Below are positions 19,913-59,670 of a stretch of 61,841 bases of DNA, piece by piece; within the stretch, counting starts at the first letter, position 1, and every line of letters starts with the position of its first letter. The position numbers and the translations under genes are program-made. Under the pieces are notes generated by a model, which searched no databases, had not been told where the DNA came from, and was given only the letters and a program-made list of their open reading frames with translations. The stretch comes from Bacteroidaceae bacterium (GTDB lineage: Bacteria > Bacteroidota > Bacteroidia > Bacteroidales > Bacteroidaceae), in NCBI GenBank assembly GCA_024401305.1, contig JAKSLI010000013.1:1-61841 (forward strand), given 5' to 3'.

Positions 19913-19940
19913 ATTAAGTAATCATTTTTATATTTTCTTA

Positions 19941-20622
19941 GTAAAGATTTTCAGTTTGATTTTTTGTGAAGATTTTGAGCGAAGCGACTCTTAAAAAAGA
20001 AATAATCTTCACTATTTTCAGAATGATTCTTGGTGCAGATTTTTAGCAAGATTTCTAAACTCTTACACACTTTCCATTTACCTCATCCAACATCCAGTTT
20101 TCTGAGTAAACTCCTTTAGGACTGAAGTTGATGAGCATACCATAACGAAAGTTCTGCAATTTCATGTATGACCATAGCTGACGTCTCTGATCATCACCGA
20201 TGTAGCTGATTGCTTTTAGTTCCAATACCACATGACCAAGATTAGGATCTGTGGCAACCATATCCATCCTGCGTTTCACAGGAGTTGGCTTACCCTTGTA
20301 ATAGATAGGGAATTCCTCTTGGCGATGGACCTTGAAGCCAGCTTCAAAAAGTTCCATATAGAGACCTGCTTCGTATGTCAACTCATCCACGTCATTGTGG
20401 TAGAAGTTGTATGCATTGAAAGCGCATCCAACGATTTTGGAAAACATGTGGTAATACGCTTGTGAGAATTGAATCTCAGTCATAATAATTTAAAATCCAA
20501 ACTTAAAATCATACTAAAAATATTTTGACGATAGTCTTCAAGGACGGTCGGGCTTTGCCCTCAAAATCCAAACTTAAAATCCAACTTAAAATCTAAACTA
20601 ATTGGAACATCAAACAGGACTG
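19941..20622 (-). mobile_element. GxxExxY gene enclosed by the two arms of repeat family A (candidate parent element)
   Basis: The left flank (about 19941-20054) aligns with the left half of the family-A element at 51157-51250, sharing AGTAAAGATTTT, AAGATTTTGAGCG-AGCGAC and TATTTTCAGAA-GATT. The right flank (about 20487-20622) aligns with its right half, sharing ACTTAAAATC, ACGATAGT, TCAAAATC and ending CAAACAGGACTGCC against CAAACTGGACACC. Between them lies only the GxxExxY gene, exactly where family-A copies have nothing. The left terminal inverted repeat is not recognisable, so this copy is degraded at one end. Calling it a mobile unit is inference. Confidence 0.5.
20055..20483 (-). CDS. 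GxxExxY family protein (PD-(D/E)XK nuclease superfamily)
   Basis: 142 aa, the normal length of this family. The signature is present as GCAFNAY near the start and TYEAGLYMEL (ExxY region), then FPIYYKGKP, RRMDMV with the conserved acidic residue, and VVLELKAI, which supplies the E-x-K of a PD-(D/E)XK fold, ending in GMLINFSP. The biological role of GxxExxY proteins is not established, although the nuclease fold is predicted. Both ends of the gene touch repeat arms of family A, suggesting it travels with or acts on that repeat. It has no signal peptide, unlike all its neighbours, so it interrupts a run of secreted-protein genes. Confidence 0.85.
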   Translation of the reverse strand: MTEIQFSQAYYHMFSKIVGCAFNAYNFYHNDVDELTYEAGLYMELFEAGFKVHRQEEFPIYYKGKPTPVKRRMDMVATDPNLGHVVLELKAISYIGDDQRRQLWSYMKLQNFRYGMLINFSPKGVYSENWMLDEVNGKCVRV

Positions 20623-20627
20623 CCTGA

Positions 20628-21467
20628 TTATTTTTTCATTATTTTCATTGTAATACCATTACGATCTTCCCATGTGGCACCTTCTATGCCTTCCTCGATA
20701 AGTGGTGTCATATCGTTGCCTGATAGACTGATAGTGATTTCATCGGCATCAGGCTTTACATAGACATCAATGCAGGTAGTAACCACAGGCTGTTGCGAGT
20801 CAGAAAGCTGATCTTTCAGTTTGCCGTGGAAAGAGGCTAAGCTGTTATCGTAAAATTCAAGTTCTCCTGCAACAGAAACCCAAGTGCCATCGCCGTTGGC
20901 GATGTCGATCTTGACACTGATAACATTGTCTTTCTCCGTGAATGCAACAGTGAGCTTGTTGTCCTTTATCTTGCCTTCCCAAGCACTGCCGCAATATTTT
21001 TCGGAGTAGTTCTTGCGCAAGAGTTCCATAATGATGTTGTTGATCTCACGCAAACCTCTATCAGAAGGACCTGCATTATTACCATGTGAAGAGCAGCTTT
21101 CTTTTCCAAAGTGTGCACTATAGCTCCACATGTCACCGTCGAGAACCTCAAAATCTGGATAATATTTATCCTTGTAATTGTGGATCTTGTGCTCACGATA
21201 GACGGCTTCAATCTGCTTCATCACATCCCCATCAACAGTGATGGTATCGCCTTGCTCGTTATGGGCAAAACCTATCTGACATCTACCGTCATCAAGGAGC
21301 TTTGCAGAATACTCATTGTGATTGTATGCTGGGCTTGAACTGTAGGTGTACGAATAGCTTGTCATGCTACTGACAGGCGCCTTCTTGCTATTCGCAGATA
21401 CTTTATTTGCATCTGCACATGAGAACAGGGAGAGGAGCAGAGTTGTCATTAAGGTGAGATGTTTCAT
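20628..21467 (-). CDS. Putative lipoprotein of unknown function
   Basis: 279 aa. The leader ends in lipobox LFSC (Cys at about residue 17), followed by a Ser/Tyr-rich linker. The body is alternating beta and charged helical segments; I do not recognise a fold. A pair of cysteines (SC near 128 and YC near 158) may form a disulfide. It is one of a series of adjacent minus-strand exported proteins. The right end of the GxxExxY/family-A unit lies only a few bases beyond its stop codon. Confidence 0.6.
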   Translation of the reverse strand: MKHLTLMTTLLLSLFSCADANKVSANSKKAPVSSMTSYSYTYSSSPAYNHNEYSAKLLDDGRCQIGFAHNEQGDTITVDGDVMKQIEAVYREHKIHNYKDKYYPDFEVLDGDMWSYSAHFGKESCSSHGNNAGPSDRGLREINNIIMELLRKNYSEKYCGSAWEGKIKDNKLTVAFTEKDNVISVKIDIANGDGTWVSVAGELEFYDNSLASFHGKLKDQLSDSQQPVVTTCIDVYVKPDADEITISLSGNDMTPLIEEGIEGATWEDRNGITMKIMKK

Positions 21468-25190: not shown

Positions 25191-25210
25191 AGTTTATAGG
25201 ATGTTTTGTT

Positions 25211-25465
25211 AGGGTGTCCAATTCTGTGTTCTTTTTTAGTTTAGATTATGAGTATGATTTTTAGTTTAGATTTTGAGAAGCTCCGCTTCGACCTTCGTCA
25301 AAGACCATCGCCCAAATATTTTTAGGTAGATTTTAAGTTTAGATTTTAAAAATCATGACTAAAAATCCTTCTAAAAATAATGAAAGGCATTTATATTGTG
25401 GTCGCTACGCTCAAATCCTCACTGAAAATCAAACTGAAAATCTTTACTTAAAACTGTATACCCTA
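25211..25465. mobile_element. MITE family A, copy 3
   Basis: It begins AGGGTGTCCA and ends ACTGTATACCCT, imperfect inverted termini, with internal GATTTTGAG..GCTCCGCTTCG and CTCAAATC/GAAAATC arms as in copies 1 and 2. Flanking direct repeats ATGTTTTGTT (25201-25210) and ATGTTTTATT (25466-25475) match at 9 of 10 positions and look like an aged target-site duplication. The right duplication overlaps the stop codon of the gene at 25471-26274, so the stop context came with the insertion. Confidence 0.7.
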
Positions 25466-25470
25466 ATGTT

Positions 25471-43830: not shown

Positions 43831-44029
43831 GGTTCAAGCTTCGCATAGCTCCGCTTGAGGCTAATGGATAAAGACTGTTGAGTAAAGACTAATGACTAAT
43901 GACAGCCTCTCGGATTTGAGATATAGGACGGGAAGTCATTACTCAACAGTCATTAGTCATTACTCAACAGCCTTTACCCTTTAGCCTTTAGCTTTTACCC
44001 TTCGCGAGCGAAGCTTGCGAAACTATACT
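43831..44029. repeat. Composite palindromic repeat including a 91-nt segment (inverted copy at 52655-52745)
   Basis: Begins after the stop with GGTTCAAGCTTCG..CGCTTGAGGCTAA, then the 91-nt block 43879-43969 built of AATGACT and GAGTAA iterations around a unique core (CAGCCTCTCGGATTTGAGAT). TTTACCC/TTTAGCC tracts and TTCGCGAGCGAAGC close the unit. The 91-nt block is present in inverted orientation near 52.7 kb with one mismatch. Confidence 0.85.
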
Positions 44030-51105: not shown

Positions 51106-51142
51106 ACTTTTGGCATTTTTCCTTTTCTAATATAAAGTTATT

Positions 51143-51392
51143 AGGGTGTCCAGTTGTCAGTAAAGATTTTAAGTATGATTTTCAATAAGATTTTGAGCGC
51201 AGCGACCTCAATATCAATACGTTACATTATTTTCAGAAAGATTTTTTGTTATGATTTTAAAATCTTTACTTAAAATCTTACAGAAAATATCTCAACGATA
51301 GTATTTAGATGGTCGAAGCATAGCTTCTCAAAATCTTAACCAAAAATCCTACTGAAAATCCTAACTAAACCAGAACCACAAACTGGACACCA
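51143..51392. mobile_element. MITE family A, copy 1
   Basis: GGTGTCCAGTT (51145-51155) and its complement AACTGGACACC (51381-51391) form the terminal inverted repeats. Exact 13-bp direct repeats ATATAAAGTTATT flank it at 51130-51142 and 51392-51404 (one base may be assigned to either). Internally, GATTTTGAGCGCAGCGACC and GGTCGAAGCATAGCTTCTC with AAAATC iterations form long imperfect complementary arms. It lacks a coding frame. It ends 37 bp before the alcohol dehydrogenase start. Confidence 0.85.
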
Positions 51393-51428
51393 TATAAAGT
51401 TATTCAACTTGAAAAATACAGAACAAAA

Positions 51429-52610: not shown

Positions 52611-52654
52611 GGTTCAAGTTTCGTAGGCGAAACTTGAGGCTAAAGGGTAAAGGT

Positions 52655-52745
52655 TGTTGAGTAATGACTAATGACTATTGAGTAATGACTTCCCGTCCTA
52701 TATCTCAAATCCGAGAGGCTGTCATTAGTCATTAGTCTTTACTCA
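52655..52745. repeat. 91-nt block, inverted copy of 43879-43969
   Basis: The complement matches 43879-43969 at 90 of 91 positions, including the core CAGCCTCTCGGATTTGAGAT and flanking AATGACT iterations. It begins 45 bp after the alcohol dehydrogenase stop, behind GGTTCAAGTTTCG..CGAAACTTGAGGC. The flippase gene ends 14 bp beyond it. Confidence 0.85.
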
Positions 52746-52758
52746 TTACTCATTAGTC

Positions 52759-54246: not shown

Positions 54247-54690
54247 AACCGCAGATTCAACCAAATTTATATTTATAATTAGGGTGTATAGTTATCAGTA
54301 AAGATTTTTAGTGAGATTTTCAATAAGATTTTGAGCGCAGCGACCTCAATATCAATACATTGCATTATTTTCAAAAAGATTTTTTGTTATGATTTTAAAA
54401 TCTTTACTTAAAATCTTACAGAAAATATCTCAACGATAGTATTTAGATGGTCGAAGCATAGCTTCTCAAAATCTTAACCAAAAATCCTACTGAAAATCCT
54501 AACTAAACCAGAACCACAAACTGGACACACTAATTTATACTTAAACCTAAGTATCAGAAACAAATAAGCACAAATTGGCACAAATTATTTCACTAATGAC
54601 AATAAATATTAAATTATATTTGTGGAATAAATTTGTTATTATTTGCTCTAATTTGTTTCCTTAAATATCCATCTGGTTTAATCTGCGGTT
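54247..54690. mobile_element. Repeat family B, copy 2, interrupted by MITE A
   Basis: Ends AACCGCAGATTCAACC (54247-54262) and GGTTTAATCTGCGGTT (54675-54690), one mismatch in 16. After removal of the family-A element the sequence continues as in copy 1 at 49386-49549, with high identity over the last 150 bp. The whole gap between the flippase and the glycosyltransferase gene (54199-54768) is this nested pair plus AT-rich ends. Confidence 0.7.
54281..54528. mobile_element. MITE family A, copy 2, inside family B
   Basis: The right 150 bp are identical to copy 1 and the left part differs at scattered positions; the left terminus has decayed to GGTGTATAGTT. Flanks ATTTATAATT (54271-54280) and ATTTATACTT (54533-54542) match at 9 of 10. 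Copy 1 of family B has a single TTTATAATTAAACC at this point, so the second copy of those bases is explained as a target duplication. Confidence 0.82.
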
Positions 54691-58362: not shown

Positions 58363-58482
58363 TTGAAAATTTCATCAATAAATTAAACTTATAAAACTTA
58401 TGTTCAAAGATAAGTATAATAAGTAAGATTTATTGATAGTTTGTACTCGTATATTTTTGTCAATAAATTAAACTTATAAGAC
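58363..58482. repeat. Palindromic CAATAAAT..ATTTATTG repeat at the 3' end of the BASS gene
   Basis: A unit of about 65 bp (58372-58437) starts TCAATAAATTAAACTTAT and ends AAGATTTATTGATA, so its ends are complementary; ACTTAT and ATAAGT inside also pair. A partial second unit (58459-58486) runs into the stop codon of the BASS gene. The same unit is upstream of the gene. Confidence 0.75.
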
Positions 58483-59439
58483 TTATGACGCATCGCTTCT
58501 TCTGTAGATTCCCGCCATAATCGTTCCACTGATGCTATGCCAAGCGCAGCTGATGGCGCAAGGGAGAAGGGCGAGAGGATTCGTGGCAAGGAAGAAGTTA
58601 GTGGCGAGGTTTGTGGCAAGTCCTGCGTTTTGCATGCCAACCTCAATGCTCAGTGTGCGGCGCTTCGCTGTATTGAACTTGAAGATTTTTGCCACGAAAT
58701 AGCCTAAGGCATAGCCGAGACTATTATGGCAGAACACGGCTCCCATCGTGATGATGAATAAGCAGAAACCTTCCTTTAGCAATGGATCGTGAACGCTTGT
58801 GATGACTCCGCCTACGATGCAAGCCAAGGCAATGACAGAGAACGCGGGCATAACAGCCTGAATCTTGCAGAACGACTCCTTGCTACCAAGCCAAACATTC
58901 AGTGAGAAACCTATCAGCACCGGTATCAGTGTTACGATGAGGATATTGACAAACATACCGACAGCATCCACATCTACACTTTGACCAGCAAACCAAAGCA
59001 CGAGAAGCGGTGTGACAACAGGGGCGAGTAGGGTAGAGATGGTGGTCATTCCGACGCTGTAAGCGATGTCGCCCTTGCACAGATAGCTCATGATATTGCT
59101 CGAAACACCACCTGGACAGCAGCCGACAAGTATGATACCGATGGAAATGTCGGTTGACAATCCGAAGATCTTGCATATCGAGAATGCTACGAGCGGCATT
59201 ATGGAGTACTGTGCGATAGTGCCGAGAAGCAGGTCGAACGGACGATGTGCAAGTGCCTTGAAGTCGGCTGTCGATAGTGTCAAGCCCATCGTGAGCATGA
59301 TGAAACCGAGAATGCTTGTCTGCACATAACCGCTAACCCAAGCGAATGTCTGGGGTACGAAGAATGTAAACACCGCTGTCAGCACGACAACAAGCGTGGC
59401 ATTCGATGATATTTTCTGTGATAATTCTGCTGGTGACAT
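58483..59439 (-). CDS. Bile acid:sodium symporter family (BASS) transporter
   Basis: 318 aa with nine or ten membrane helices. TMGLTLSTADFKAL and LVGCCPGGVSSNIMSYLCKGDIAYSVGMTTISTLLAPVVTP are the sodium-site and cross-over regions of the family, and EVGMQNAGLATNLA completes the second site. Members carry bile acids, pantoate or other organic anions with sodium. The substrate here is not predictable. Palindromic repeats of one family flank the gene on both sides, so it may have its own transcript ends. Confidence 0.9.
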   Translation of the reverse strand: MSPAELSQKISSNATLVVVLTAVFTFFVPQTFAWVSGYVQTSILGFIMLTMGLTLSTADFKALAHRPFDLLLGTIAQYSIMPLVAFSICKIFGLSTDISIGIILVGCCPGGVSSNIMSYLCKGDIAYSVGMTTISTLLAPVVTPLLVLWFAGQSVDVDAVGMFVNILIVTLIPVLIGFSLNVWLGSKESFCKIQAVMPAFSVIALACIVGGVITSVHDPLLKEGFCLFIITMGAVFCHNSLGYALGYFVAKIFKFNTAKRRTLSIEVGMQNAGLATNLATNFFLATNPLALLPCAISCAWHSISGTIMAGIYRRSDAS

Positions 59440-59670
59440 TGATTATAGGAATGCTTATATCAAAGATAAGTCCGATTTATTGATTGACTTATATTTTTAT
59501 CAATAAATAAAACTTATATGACTTATGTTCAAAGACAAGTATGATAAGTCAGATTTACTGATTGGCTTATGTTTTTATCAATAAATAAAACTTATATGAC
59601 TTATGTTCAAATATAAGTATGATAAGTCAGATTTATTGATAGTCTTAACCAATAAATTATATTTGTGATA
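59440..59670. repeat. 78-bp tandem units of the CAATAAAT palindrome repeat
   Basis: Two successive units (59494-59571 and 59572-59649) with few differences, plus a partial one before them. Each contains TTTTTATCAATAAATAAAAC, ACTTATGTTCAAA, AAGTATGATAAGTCAGATTTA and TTGAT. Unit number could vary by recombination. This is the whole spacer between the BASS gene and the small membrane protein gene. Confidence 0.8.

What the first reader, a model, noticed from the sequence alone, without database searches (positions are those of the whole stretch)
19941..20622. GxxExxY nuclease-fold gene occupies the exact centre of a family-A element
Seen: the left and right flanks of the GxxExxY gene align with the left and right halves of the MITE, and the gene fills the point where the halves meet in copies without it. 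It also interrupts a run of secreted-protein genes, as an insertion would. Known: GxxExxY proteins have a predicted PD-(D/E)XK fold and no established function. Inference: the MITEs are internal-deletion forms of a GxxExxY-bearing element, and the protein may be the mobility nuclease or a passenger. If so, a common unexplained family would gain a role.
Basis: partly seen in the sequence, partly recalled or inferred. Interest (0 to 1): 0.8.

Follow-up and report, generated by a model that had tools for sequence, protein, structure and literature searches.

The report
Nuclease gene inside repeat palindromes
A small, common bacterial gene of unknown role (GxxExxY) tends to sit in the middle of a matched pair of repeat arms, wedged between genes of one operon, which suggests that it is part of a compact selfish DNA element rather than an ordinary gene.

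Summary
In detail: the GxxExxY gene (20055-20483, minus strand) lies where the two halves of the family-A repeat meet. The wider pattern is stronger than the finding. Of scored GxxExxY loci, 65 of 88 from the same bacterial family and 53 of 75 from a wide sample (bacteria and archaea) lie between complementary arms; controls give 1 of 23 and 1 of 69. Arms are short tandem motifs whose sequence follows the protein clade (78/110 against 0/58). Elements lie in sense between co-directional genes, 121 to 7, for example between two methylmalonyl-CoA mutase subunit genes. In 5 of 12 pairs read, identity peaks at the element; at korA|korB the gene is far more diverged than its flanks. Two junctions hold a GxxExxY gene in one species and an S23-type gene in a congener. 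Best reading: a homing-type, operon-dwelling mobile element with a PD-(D/E)XK nuclease; cutting and movement are inferred.

The parts
19938..20601 (-). GxxExxY element: gene plus complementary repeat arms
   Evidence: arms 19938-19979 / 20560-20601 complementary, 79% of 42 nt; both flanks align to family-A copies and meet at MITE position 117-121
19938..20045 (.). left arm (downstream of the gene), GATTTT motif repeated every 12-13 bases
   Evidence: sequence; E 5.2e-12 to MITE 20-143
20055..20483 (-). GxxExxY gene, PD-(D/E)XK nuclease fold
   Evidence: PF13366 and TIGR04256; AlphaFold2 pLDDT 92.5; nearest folds 4ic1 (SSO0001), SwaI, archaeal Hjc
20489..20626 (.). right arm (upstream of the gene) with a possible decayed terminal repeat at its outer end
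   Evidence: aligns to MITE 118-257; 10 of 14 terminal bases
25209..25467 (-). family-A copy without gene (MITE), 9-bp target duplication with 1 mismatch
51140..51394 (+). family-A copy without gene (MITE), 9-bp target duplication TAAAGTTAT
54278..54533 (+). family-A copy without gene (MITE)
58373..58487 (.). ACTTAT hairpin and half-hairpin without gene; same repeat as the arms of another GxxExxY gene of this genome (contig C34, L032)
59493..59658 (.). two more ACTTAT hairpins

Best explanation
The gene and its two arms form one small mobile element (about 0.5-0.65 kb) that lives between genes of an operon. The protein is a DNA nuclease of the PD-(D/E)XK fold. Shown by sequence: the arms, the link of arm motif to protein clade, sense orientation, shared junctions, turnover at one junction and identity peaks in some close pairs. 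Inferred: the nuclease recognises its own class of tandem-motif arms, or the junction, and makes a break; repair from an occupied copy carries gene and arms into the homologous junction together with flanking DNA (homing with co-conversion), as free-standing homing endonucleases of phage T4 do. The arms may also pair in the mRNA, so that the insert is looped out or its expression damped. Gene-less hairpins of the same repeat are sites that lost, or never held, the gene. Family A in this genome is a side branch in which such a palindrome lies between the ends of an insertion sequence and is multiplied by that sequence's enzyme.
For: Arms: 65/88 and 53/75 scored loci reach 18 or more; ParE genes 1/23, displaced pseudo-genes 1/69; RAYT genes, a known palindrome-flanked kind, 12/16. 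Tandem CRCNRAG pointing inward in at least one arm: 78/110 of the main protein clade (41/44 outside Bacteroidota, 37/66 within the rest), 0/58 of the other clades, host-flank control 2/168. Arms match their own partner better than foreign arms with the same motif: median 24 against 11, 47 loci. Motif and gene co-occur: 37/56 against 11/95 genomes, mean 11.2 against 0.42 copies, above all 5000 within-genus shuffles. Sense 121 to antisense 7 of 163, and 71 to 7 after one vote per neighbour group. Identity peaks at the element in 5 of 12 pairs read; where flanks are 90% or more alike the gene is more alike still in 3 of 3 pairs, and at 84-90% it is less alike in 5 of 6, mean 69 against 87. E34, D74, E88, K90, Q102, Y106 invariant in 40 proteins. 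dN/dS 0.04-0.08 in 5 of the 7 pairs that gave a ratio, 17 tried. Patchy: 56 of 151 genomes, up to 7 matches. Confident model nearest to SSO0001, SwaI and Hjc structures.
Against: No cleavage, binding or movement was observed. I did not search systematically for a shared DNA target or for target duplications at the junctions; the few read by eye show neither. The identity peaks come from few pairs, L043/L212 may be one species, and L114/L116 and L056/L073 show no peak. The five low pairs at 84-90% involve only four korA|korB loci, two of them with identical genes, so they are not independent. General recombination with selection could make such patterns. S23-type elements, which carry no nuclease, share architecture, orientation and in places the junction, so the nuclease cannot be the only way such elements spread. 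Protein distance against arm similarity over all pairs was weak (rho -0.053, permutation sd 0.035). The motif also occurs the wrong way round (14 upstream, 17 downstream of 110). One close pair had dN/dS 0.82 on few changes and one (L088/L089) zero.
Confidence: 0.45

Rival explanations
1. REPIN/RAYT-like system: the nuclease is the transposition enzyme for the hairpins. Gene-bearing copies are autonomous, gene-less hairpins are non-autonomous and scatter through the genome by excision and insertion of hairpin DNA.
For: The own genome has one ACTTAT gene copy in the loop of a hairpin and about 43 other places with the repeat; up to 158 motif hits per genome, tied to gene presence; the flank test gives the same picture for RAYT genes.
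Against: No Y1 transposase domain in the protein; RAYT genes in these genomes show no clear orientation bias (6 sense, 1 antisense, 9 mixed of 16) whereas GxxExxY does; many GxxExxY elements lie at the same junction in different genera.
Confidence: 0.25
2. RNA element like the 23S rRNA intervening sequences: the arms pair in the operon mRNA, RNase III or the stem itself isolates the ORF, and the protein is secondary. Spread is by general recombination or an RNA intermediate.
For: Strong sense bias; arms stay alike although their sequence changes between loci; RNA fold better than shuffles (z -7.1 for L212, 100 shuffles; z -2.9 for the window, only 20 shuffles); S23-type elements share architecture and junctions; the Coxiella S23p intervening sequence has a 28-bp stem and three tandem heptamers GACAGAT in most strains named (PMC4990558, passages).
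Against: Catalytic residues are invariant and five of seven measurable pairs show purifying selection, which a passenger would not need; the motifs themselves are conserved with the protein clade, not only their pairing.
Confidence: 0.2
3. Domesticated host gene: a useful nuclease kept in operons, with arms as regulatory or terminator structures.
For: dN/dS 0.04-0.08 in five pairs; presence between the mutase subunit genes in several families of Bacteroidales.
Against: Patchy (56 of 151 genomes), turnover at the same junction, a 99-100% identical gene in two genera beside unlike upstream DNA (L081/L086), broken copies with stops.
Confidence: 0.07
4. Reader's model in full, for family A only (not exclusive of the above): family-A MITEs derive by internal deletion from a GxxExxY transposon bounded by the same terminal repeats.
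For: The gene copy matches both halves and may have a decayed right end.
Against: The ends belong to a separate insertion sequence and are unlinked to GxxExxY across 151 genomes; no left end in the gene copy and none above chance in five related loci; two family-A-like copies have no end at the expected place.
Confidence: 0.12

Closest known systems
Free-standing homing endonucleases of T4-like phages (Seg/Mob; e.g. mobE between nrdA and nrdB)
   Same: Intergenic nuclease gene between conserved genes, even between two subunit genes; co-conversion of flanks; RNA hairpins at the gene (PMC2988022, passages)
   Different: GIY-YIG and HNH enzymes there (same passages), PD-(D/E)XK here; long tandem-motif complementary arms around the gene are not mentioned in the passages seen; here in bacterial and archaeal genomes; homing itself is not shown here
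REPIN/RAYT systems
   Same: Gene flanked by palindromes, dispersed gene-less hairpins (abstracts of PMC3116915 and PMC3733652; own flank test)
   Different: PD-(D/E)XK fold instead of a tyrosine transposase; tandem short-motif arms instead of GC-rich REP hairpins; sense bias in operons
23S rRNA intervening sequences with S23 (four-helix) ORF
   Same: ORF in the loop of complementary arms; tandem heptamers (PMC4990558, passages); S23-type elements share junctions with GxxExxY elements
   Different: Between protein genes, not in rRNA, in the cases read; different protein family; RNA processing not shown
Bacterial MITEs
   Same: Gene-less family-A copies have terminal repeats and 9-bp duplications
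   Different: The gene-bearing copy lacks intact ends, and the ends are unlinked to GxxExxY across genomes

Membership tests
GxxExxY / PDDEXK_3 protein family | profile match over the curated cut-off | tested here: met
   78.2 bits against 22; 80.4 against 35
PD-(D/E)XK nuclease | fold and D..ExK active site | tested here: met
Homing endonuclease element | gene between conserved genes, at the same site in different lineages | tested here: met
   groups of loci with both neighbours shared; exemplars identified by profile
Homing endonuclease element | co-conversion of flanking DNA | tested here: inconclusive
   identity peak in 5 of 12 pairs, few independent pairs
Homing endonuclease element | cuts the empty site but not the occupied one | not testable with these tools
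   needs an assay
REPIN/RAYT | Y1 (HUH) tyrosine transposase | tested here: not met
   only PF13366 found at E 0.001
REPIN/RAYT | dispersed hairpins of the gene's flanking repeat | tested here: met
   own genome, ACTTAT repeat; motif hits in other genomes
23S rRNA intervening sequence | inserted in 23S rRNA | tested here: not met
   window element lies between two ORFs; exemplar junctions lie between protein genes; not every locus was checked
23S rRNA intervening sequence | excised by RNase III | not testable with these tools
   needs RNA
MITE | intact terminal inverted repeats at both ends of the gene-bearing copy | tested here: not met
   left end not found, right end 10 of 14 bases
MITE | terminal repeats and target duplication on gene-less family-A copies | tested here: met
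   9-bp duplications read by eye in 5 of 19 copies printed, one with a mismatch

The most novel reading that the evidence does not exclude
A so far undescribed class of mobile element, spread over bacteria and archaea: a single small gene (GxxExxY nuclease, or S23 four-helix protein as an alternative cargo) held in the loop of two complementary arms of short tandem motifs and inserted in sense between genes of one operon. Two common 'orphan' families and the long-puzzling rRNA intervening sequences would be versions of it.
Probability: 0.35. Interest if true: 0.92.

Novelty: new variant of a known kind. Interest (0 to 1): 0.82.

Why it matters
GxxExxY genes are common (56 of 151 genomes of this family; at least 586 relatives in one scan) and have no assigned role: in the open-access library 2 papers hold the name, and neither passage gives a function. 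If they are homing-type elements with a diagnostic DNA signature, a large set of hypothetical genes and a widespread class of repeats (CACAGAGACACGGAG and kin; none of six such strings is found in that library) would be explained together, the link to S23 intervening sequences would become testable, and a compact nuclease whose arm motif changes by clade would be open to study.

Tried and rejected
Family-A ends as the key: rejected, since the end sequence is unlinked to the gene (7/56 and 12/95 genomes). An enzyme for these ends: a 398-aa ORF in G064 has no Pfam, NCBIfam or PDB-sequence hit at E 1; its relatives in the ten plasmid rows shown are hypothetical (8) or unannotated (2). Protein against arm similarity: a first version was faulty (a threshold excluded 13119 of 13695 pairs); the corrected one was weak overall, with arm similarity 2.7 times the far-flank value only for the closest proteins (55 pairs). 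The clade claim therefore rests on the motif count. Empty site at the window's own locus: the neighbour protein 20628-21467 has only weak relatives, in 7 other of 100 genomes of the genus, so none could be read. Profile search of PDB sequences found only one weak hit (E 0.66). PADLOC: none. PHROGs: none for the window protein, one weak for a relative. Other S23/GxxExxY pairs (such as L127, L129, L138 against L256) share a neighbourhood but were not shown to share the junction; only L153/L075 and L140/L106 were read base by base. The S23 score of 25/30 uses the GxxExxY threshold; against the S23 set's own cross-locus null (95th percentile 23, inflated by homologous loci) 14 of 30 reach 23.

Rows dropped before counts. 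Family GxxExxY loci: 93 fetched, 88 scored (L042 and L054 left out by hand at contig starts, L048 lost by an offset error of mine, L056 and L104 short flanks; in L119 my script set the right edge 87 bases inside the gene). The 93 are not all places: broken and some lower-scoring ones were not fetched. Wide loci: 75 of 80. ParE: 23 of 26. Y1: 16 of 30, the full-length RAYT-like ones chosen by hand. S23 orientation: 29 of 30. dN/dS: 17 pairs tried, 7 gave a ratio, 9 were identical or saturated, 1 had a stop. The 80 wide loci are the best of at least 586, found with a peptide pattern of the main clade, so they speak for that clade only. Clade membership was copied by hand from the tree, and the 44 non-Bacteroidota loci were picked by hand from record titles.

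Full report
What was checked. The window is contig C21 of a 3.2-Mb draft genome. The GxxExxY gene at 20055-20483 (minus strand) is a clear family member. Its left flank aligns to the first half of the family-A repeat and its right flank to the second half, meeting at MITE positions 117-121, and the two flanks are complementary to each other.

Family A itself. The genome has 16 near-full-length family-A places, two partial ones with no end at the expected place, and one cut by a contig end. Printed copies show ends TAGGGTGTCCAGTT and, in 5 of 19, 9-bp target duplications, one with a mismatch (read by eye). In another genome of the family (G064) the same end sequence bounds a 1.63-kb element with an unclassified 398-aa ORF and perfect 9-bp duplications, TCAAATAAC and ATTATTAGC. 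The end sequence is present in 7 of 56 genomes with GxxExxY and 12 of 95 without. So the mobility of gene-less family-A copies is most simply that of an insertion sequence. The gene-bearing copy has no left end and a possible decayed right end (10 of 14 bases), so I cannot exclude that it once had both.

The general pattern. The four GxxExxY genes found in this genome all lie between complementary arms (flank scores 37, 22, 35 and 30). Among 88 scored loci from the same bacterial family, 65 exceed the 95th and 54 the 99th percentile of a cross-locus null. Of 75 scored loci from a wide sample, including Planctomycetota, Chloroflexota, cyanobacteria, Acidobacteriota and Methanosarcinales, 53 reach the same score, against 8.2% of cross-locus pairs, which share the motif and so make a strict null. 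Toxin genes (PF05016) give 1 of 23 and displaced pseudo-genes 1 of 69; RAYT genes, a known palindrome-flanked kind, give 12 of 16.

The arms. They are tandem motifs of 6-7 bases with a spacing of about 8-13: CACAGAG/CACGGAG, CGCGGAT, ACGAATT, ACTTAT, GATTTT. In gene orientation CRCNRAG tandems point inward in at least one arm in 78 of 110 loci of the main protein clade (41 of 44 outside Bacteroidota, 37 of 66 of the rest), in 0 of 58 loci of the other clades and in 2 of 168 host flanks. The wrong-way motif also occurs (14 upstream, 17 downstream of 110). The other clades more often use an ...AT variant (16 upstream, 18 downstream of 58, against 4 and 5 of 110). The arms of a locus match each other far better than arms of other loci with the same motif (median 24 against 11; 47 loci; own partner best in 21 of 47), so the two arms evolve together. 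Protein distance against arm similarity over all pairs was weak.

Gene-less hairpins. The ACTTAT repeat that brackets one GxxExxY gene (contig C34) gave 51 matches in the genome; without opposite-strand duplicates and the gene's own arms 45 remain, or 43 places if split halves are merged, four of the matches in this window. A general triple-motif pattern occurs in 37 of 56 genomes with the gene and 11 of 95 without, mean 11.2 against 0.42 copies; its reversed control hits 2 genomes. The 37 joint genomes exceed all 5000 within-genus shuffles (mean 26.6). Exceptions exist: G017 has 23 hits and no gene detected, though the control also hits there 6 times.

Where the elements sit. Of 163 loci with both neighbours called by a simple ORF script, 121 are sense between two co-directional genes and 7 antisense; with one vote per group of loci sharing neighbours, 71 and 7. 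Exemplar neighbours identified by profile: methylmalonyl-CoA mutase small and large subunit (both over the cut-off); 2-oxoacid:acceptor oxidoreductase alpha and beta (partial ORFs, best hits under the cut-off; called korA|korB here); pta (over) and ackA (partial); SufBD; TruA (over); FnlA-like and WecB-like (under). An empty pta|ackA junction (L165) and a filled one (L115), and radA|FAD-protein with 13 bases between the genes in Parabacteroides but a GxxExxY gene in Bacteroides finegoldii, show insertion between tightly packed genes.

How they move. Of 12 pairs read in bins, 5 show a gene 98-100% identical with identity falling on both sides: L111/L112 (90-91% far left, 95, 100, 96-99, 86-88% far right), L118/L119, L088/L089, L047/L049 and L081/L086. 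L114/L116 and L056/L073 do not, and L043/L212 is nearly flat. L081/L086, from two genera, share a 99-100% identical gene beside unlike upstream DNA. Of 79 pairs with both flanks homologous, the gene is more alike than the flanks in 3 of 3 at 90% or more flank identity, 1 of 6 at 84-90, 2 of 36 at 76-84 and 1 of 34 below. At korA|korB the gene is 62-71% identical where flanks are 87-88% (L077, L084, L111, L112), about as low as in korA|korB pairs with flanks of roughly 73-82% (59-68%). So gene and flank histories look uncoupled: turnover plus recent spread, though the pairs are not independent. In the protein tree the korA|korB copies form one group with five others inside, and mutA|mutB needs three changes, of which well-supported branches force one.

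The S23 parallel. PF05635 genes in these genomes also lie between complementary short-period arms (25 of 30 by the same threshold, 14 of 30 by a stricter one) and in sense (25 sense, 0 antisense, 4 mixed of 29). At two junctions with 97-98% identical flanks one species has an S23-type gene and its congener a GxxExxY gene. The Coxiella intervening sequence, which carries an S23 protein, has a 28-bp stem and tandem heptamers (PMC4990558, passages). I take this as a shared architecture, not proof of a shared mechanism.

Mechanism and rivals. An apparently intact nuclease, insertion between conserved genes, identity peaks and turnover fit homing-type spread best; phage T4 mobE between nrdA and nrdB is a close parallel (PMC2988022, passages). 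A RAYT-like and an RNA-based reading remain open, and S23 elements, lacking a nuclease, argue that something besides the nuclease helps such elements spread. Cutting, target and movement are not shown.

Noticed in passing
window 58373-58487 and 59493-59658: ACTTAT hairpins of the same kind as the arms of another GxxExxY gene (C34, L032); about 43 such places elsewhere in the genome and here together.
   Followed up: yes
window 43854-43994 and 52630-52755: Inverted repeats with GGGTAAAGGCTAAAGG-like motifs resembling the arms of this genome's only detected S23/four-helix gene (L358; resemblance by eye).
   Followed up: partly
L153/L075 and L140/L106: Same operon junction with 97-98% identical flanks holds an S23-type gene in one species and a GxxExxY gene in a congener.
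   Followed up: yes
L321, L322, L323 (G064): 1.63-kb insertion sequence with the family-A ends, unclassified 398-aa ORF and 9-bp duplications, and a minimal derivative of about 55 bp.
   Followed up: partly
L004, L009, L010, L011: Family-A copies that seem nested inside ACTTAT hairpins.
   Followed up: no
G017: 23 triple-motif hits but no GxxExxY gene at E 1e-4; the reversed control pattern also hits 6 times there.
   Followed up: no
listing: Several broken GxxExxY copies with in-frame stops or only fragments, as expected of a mobile family.
   Followed up: no
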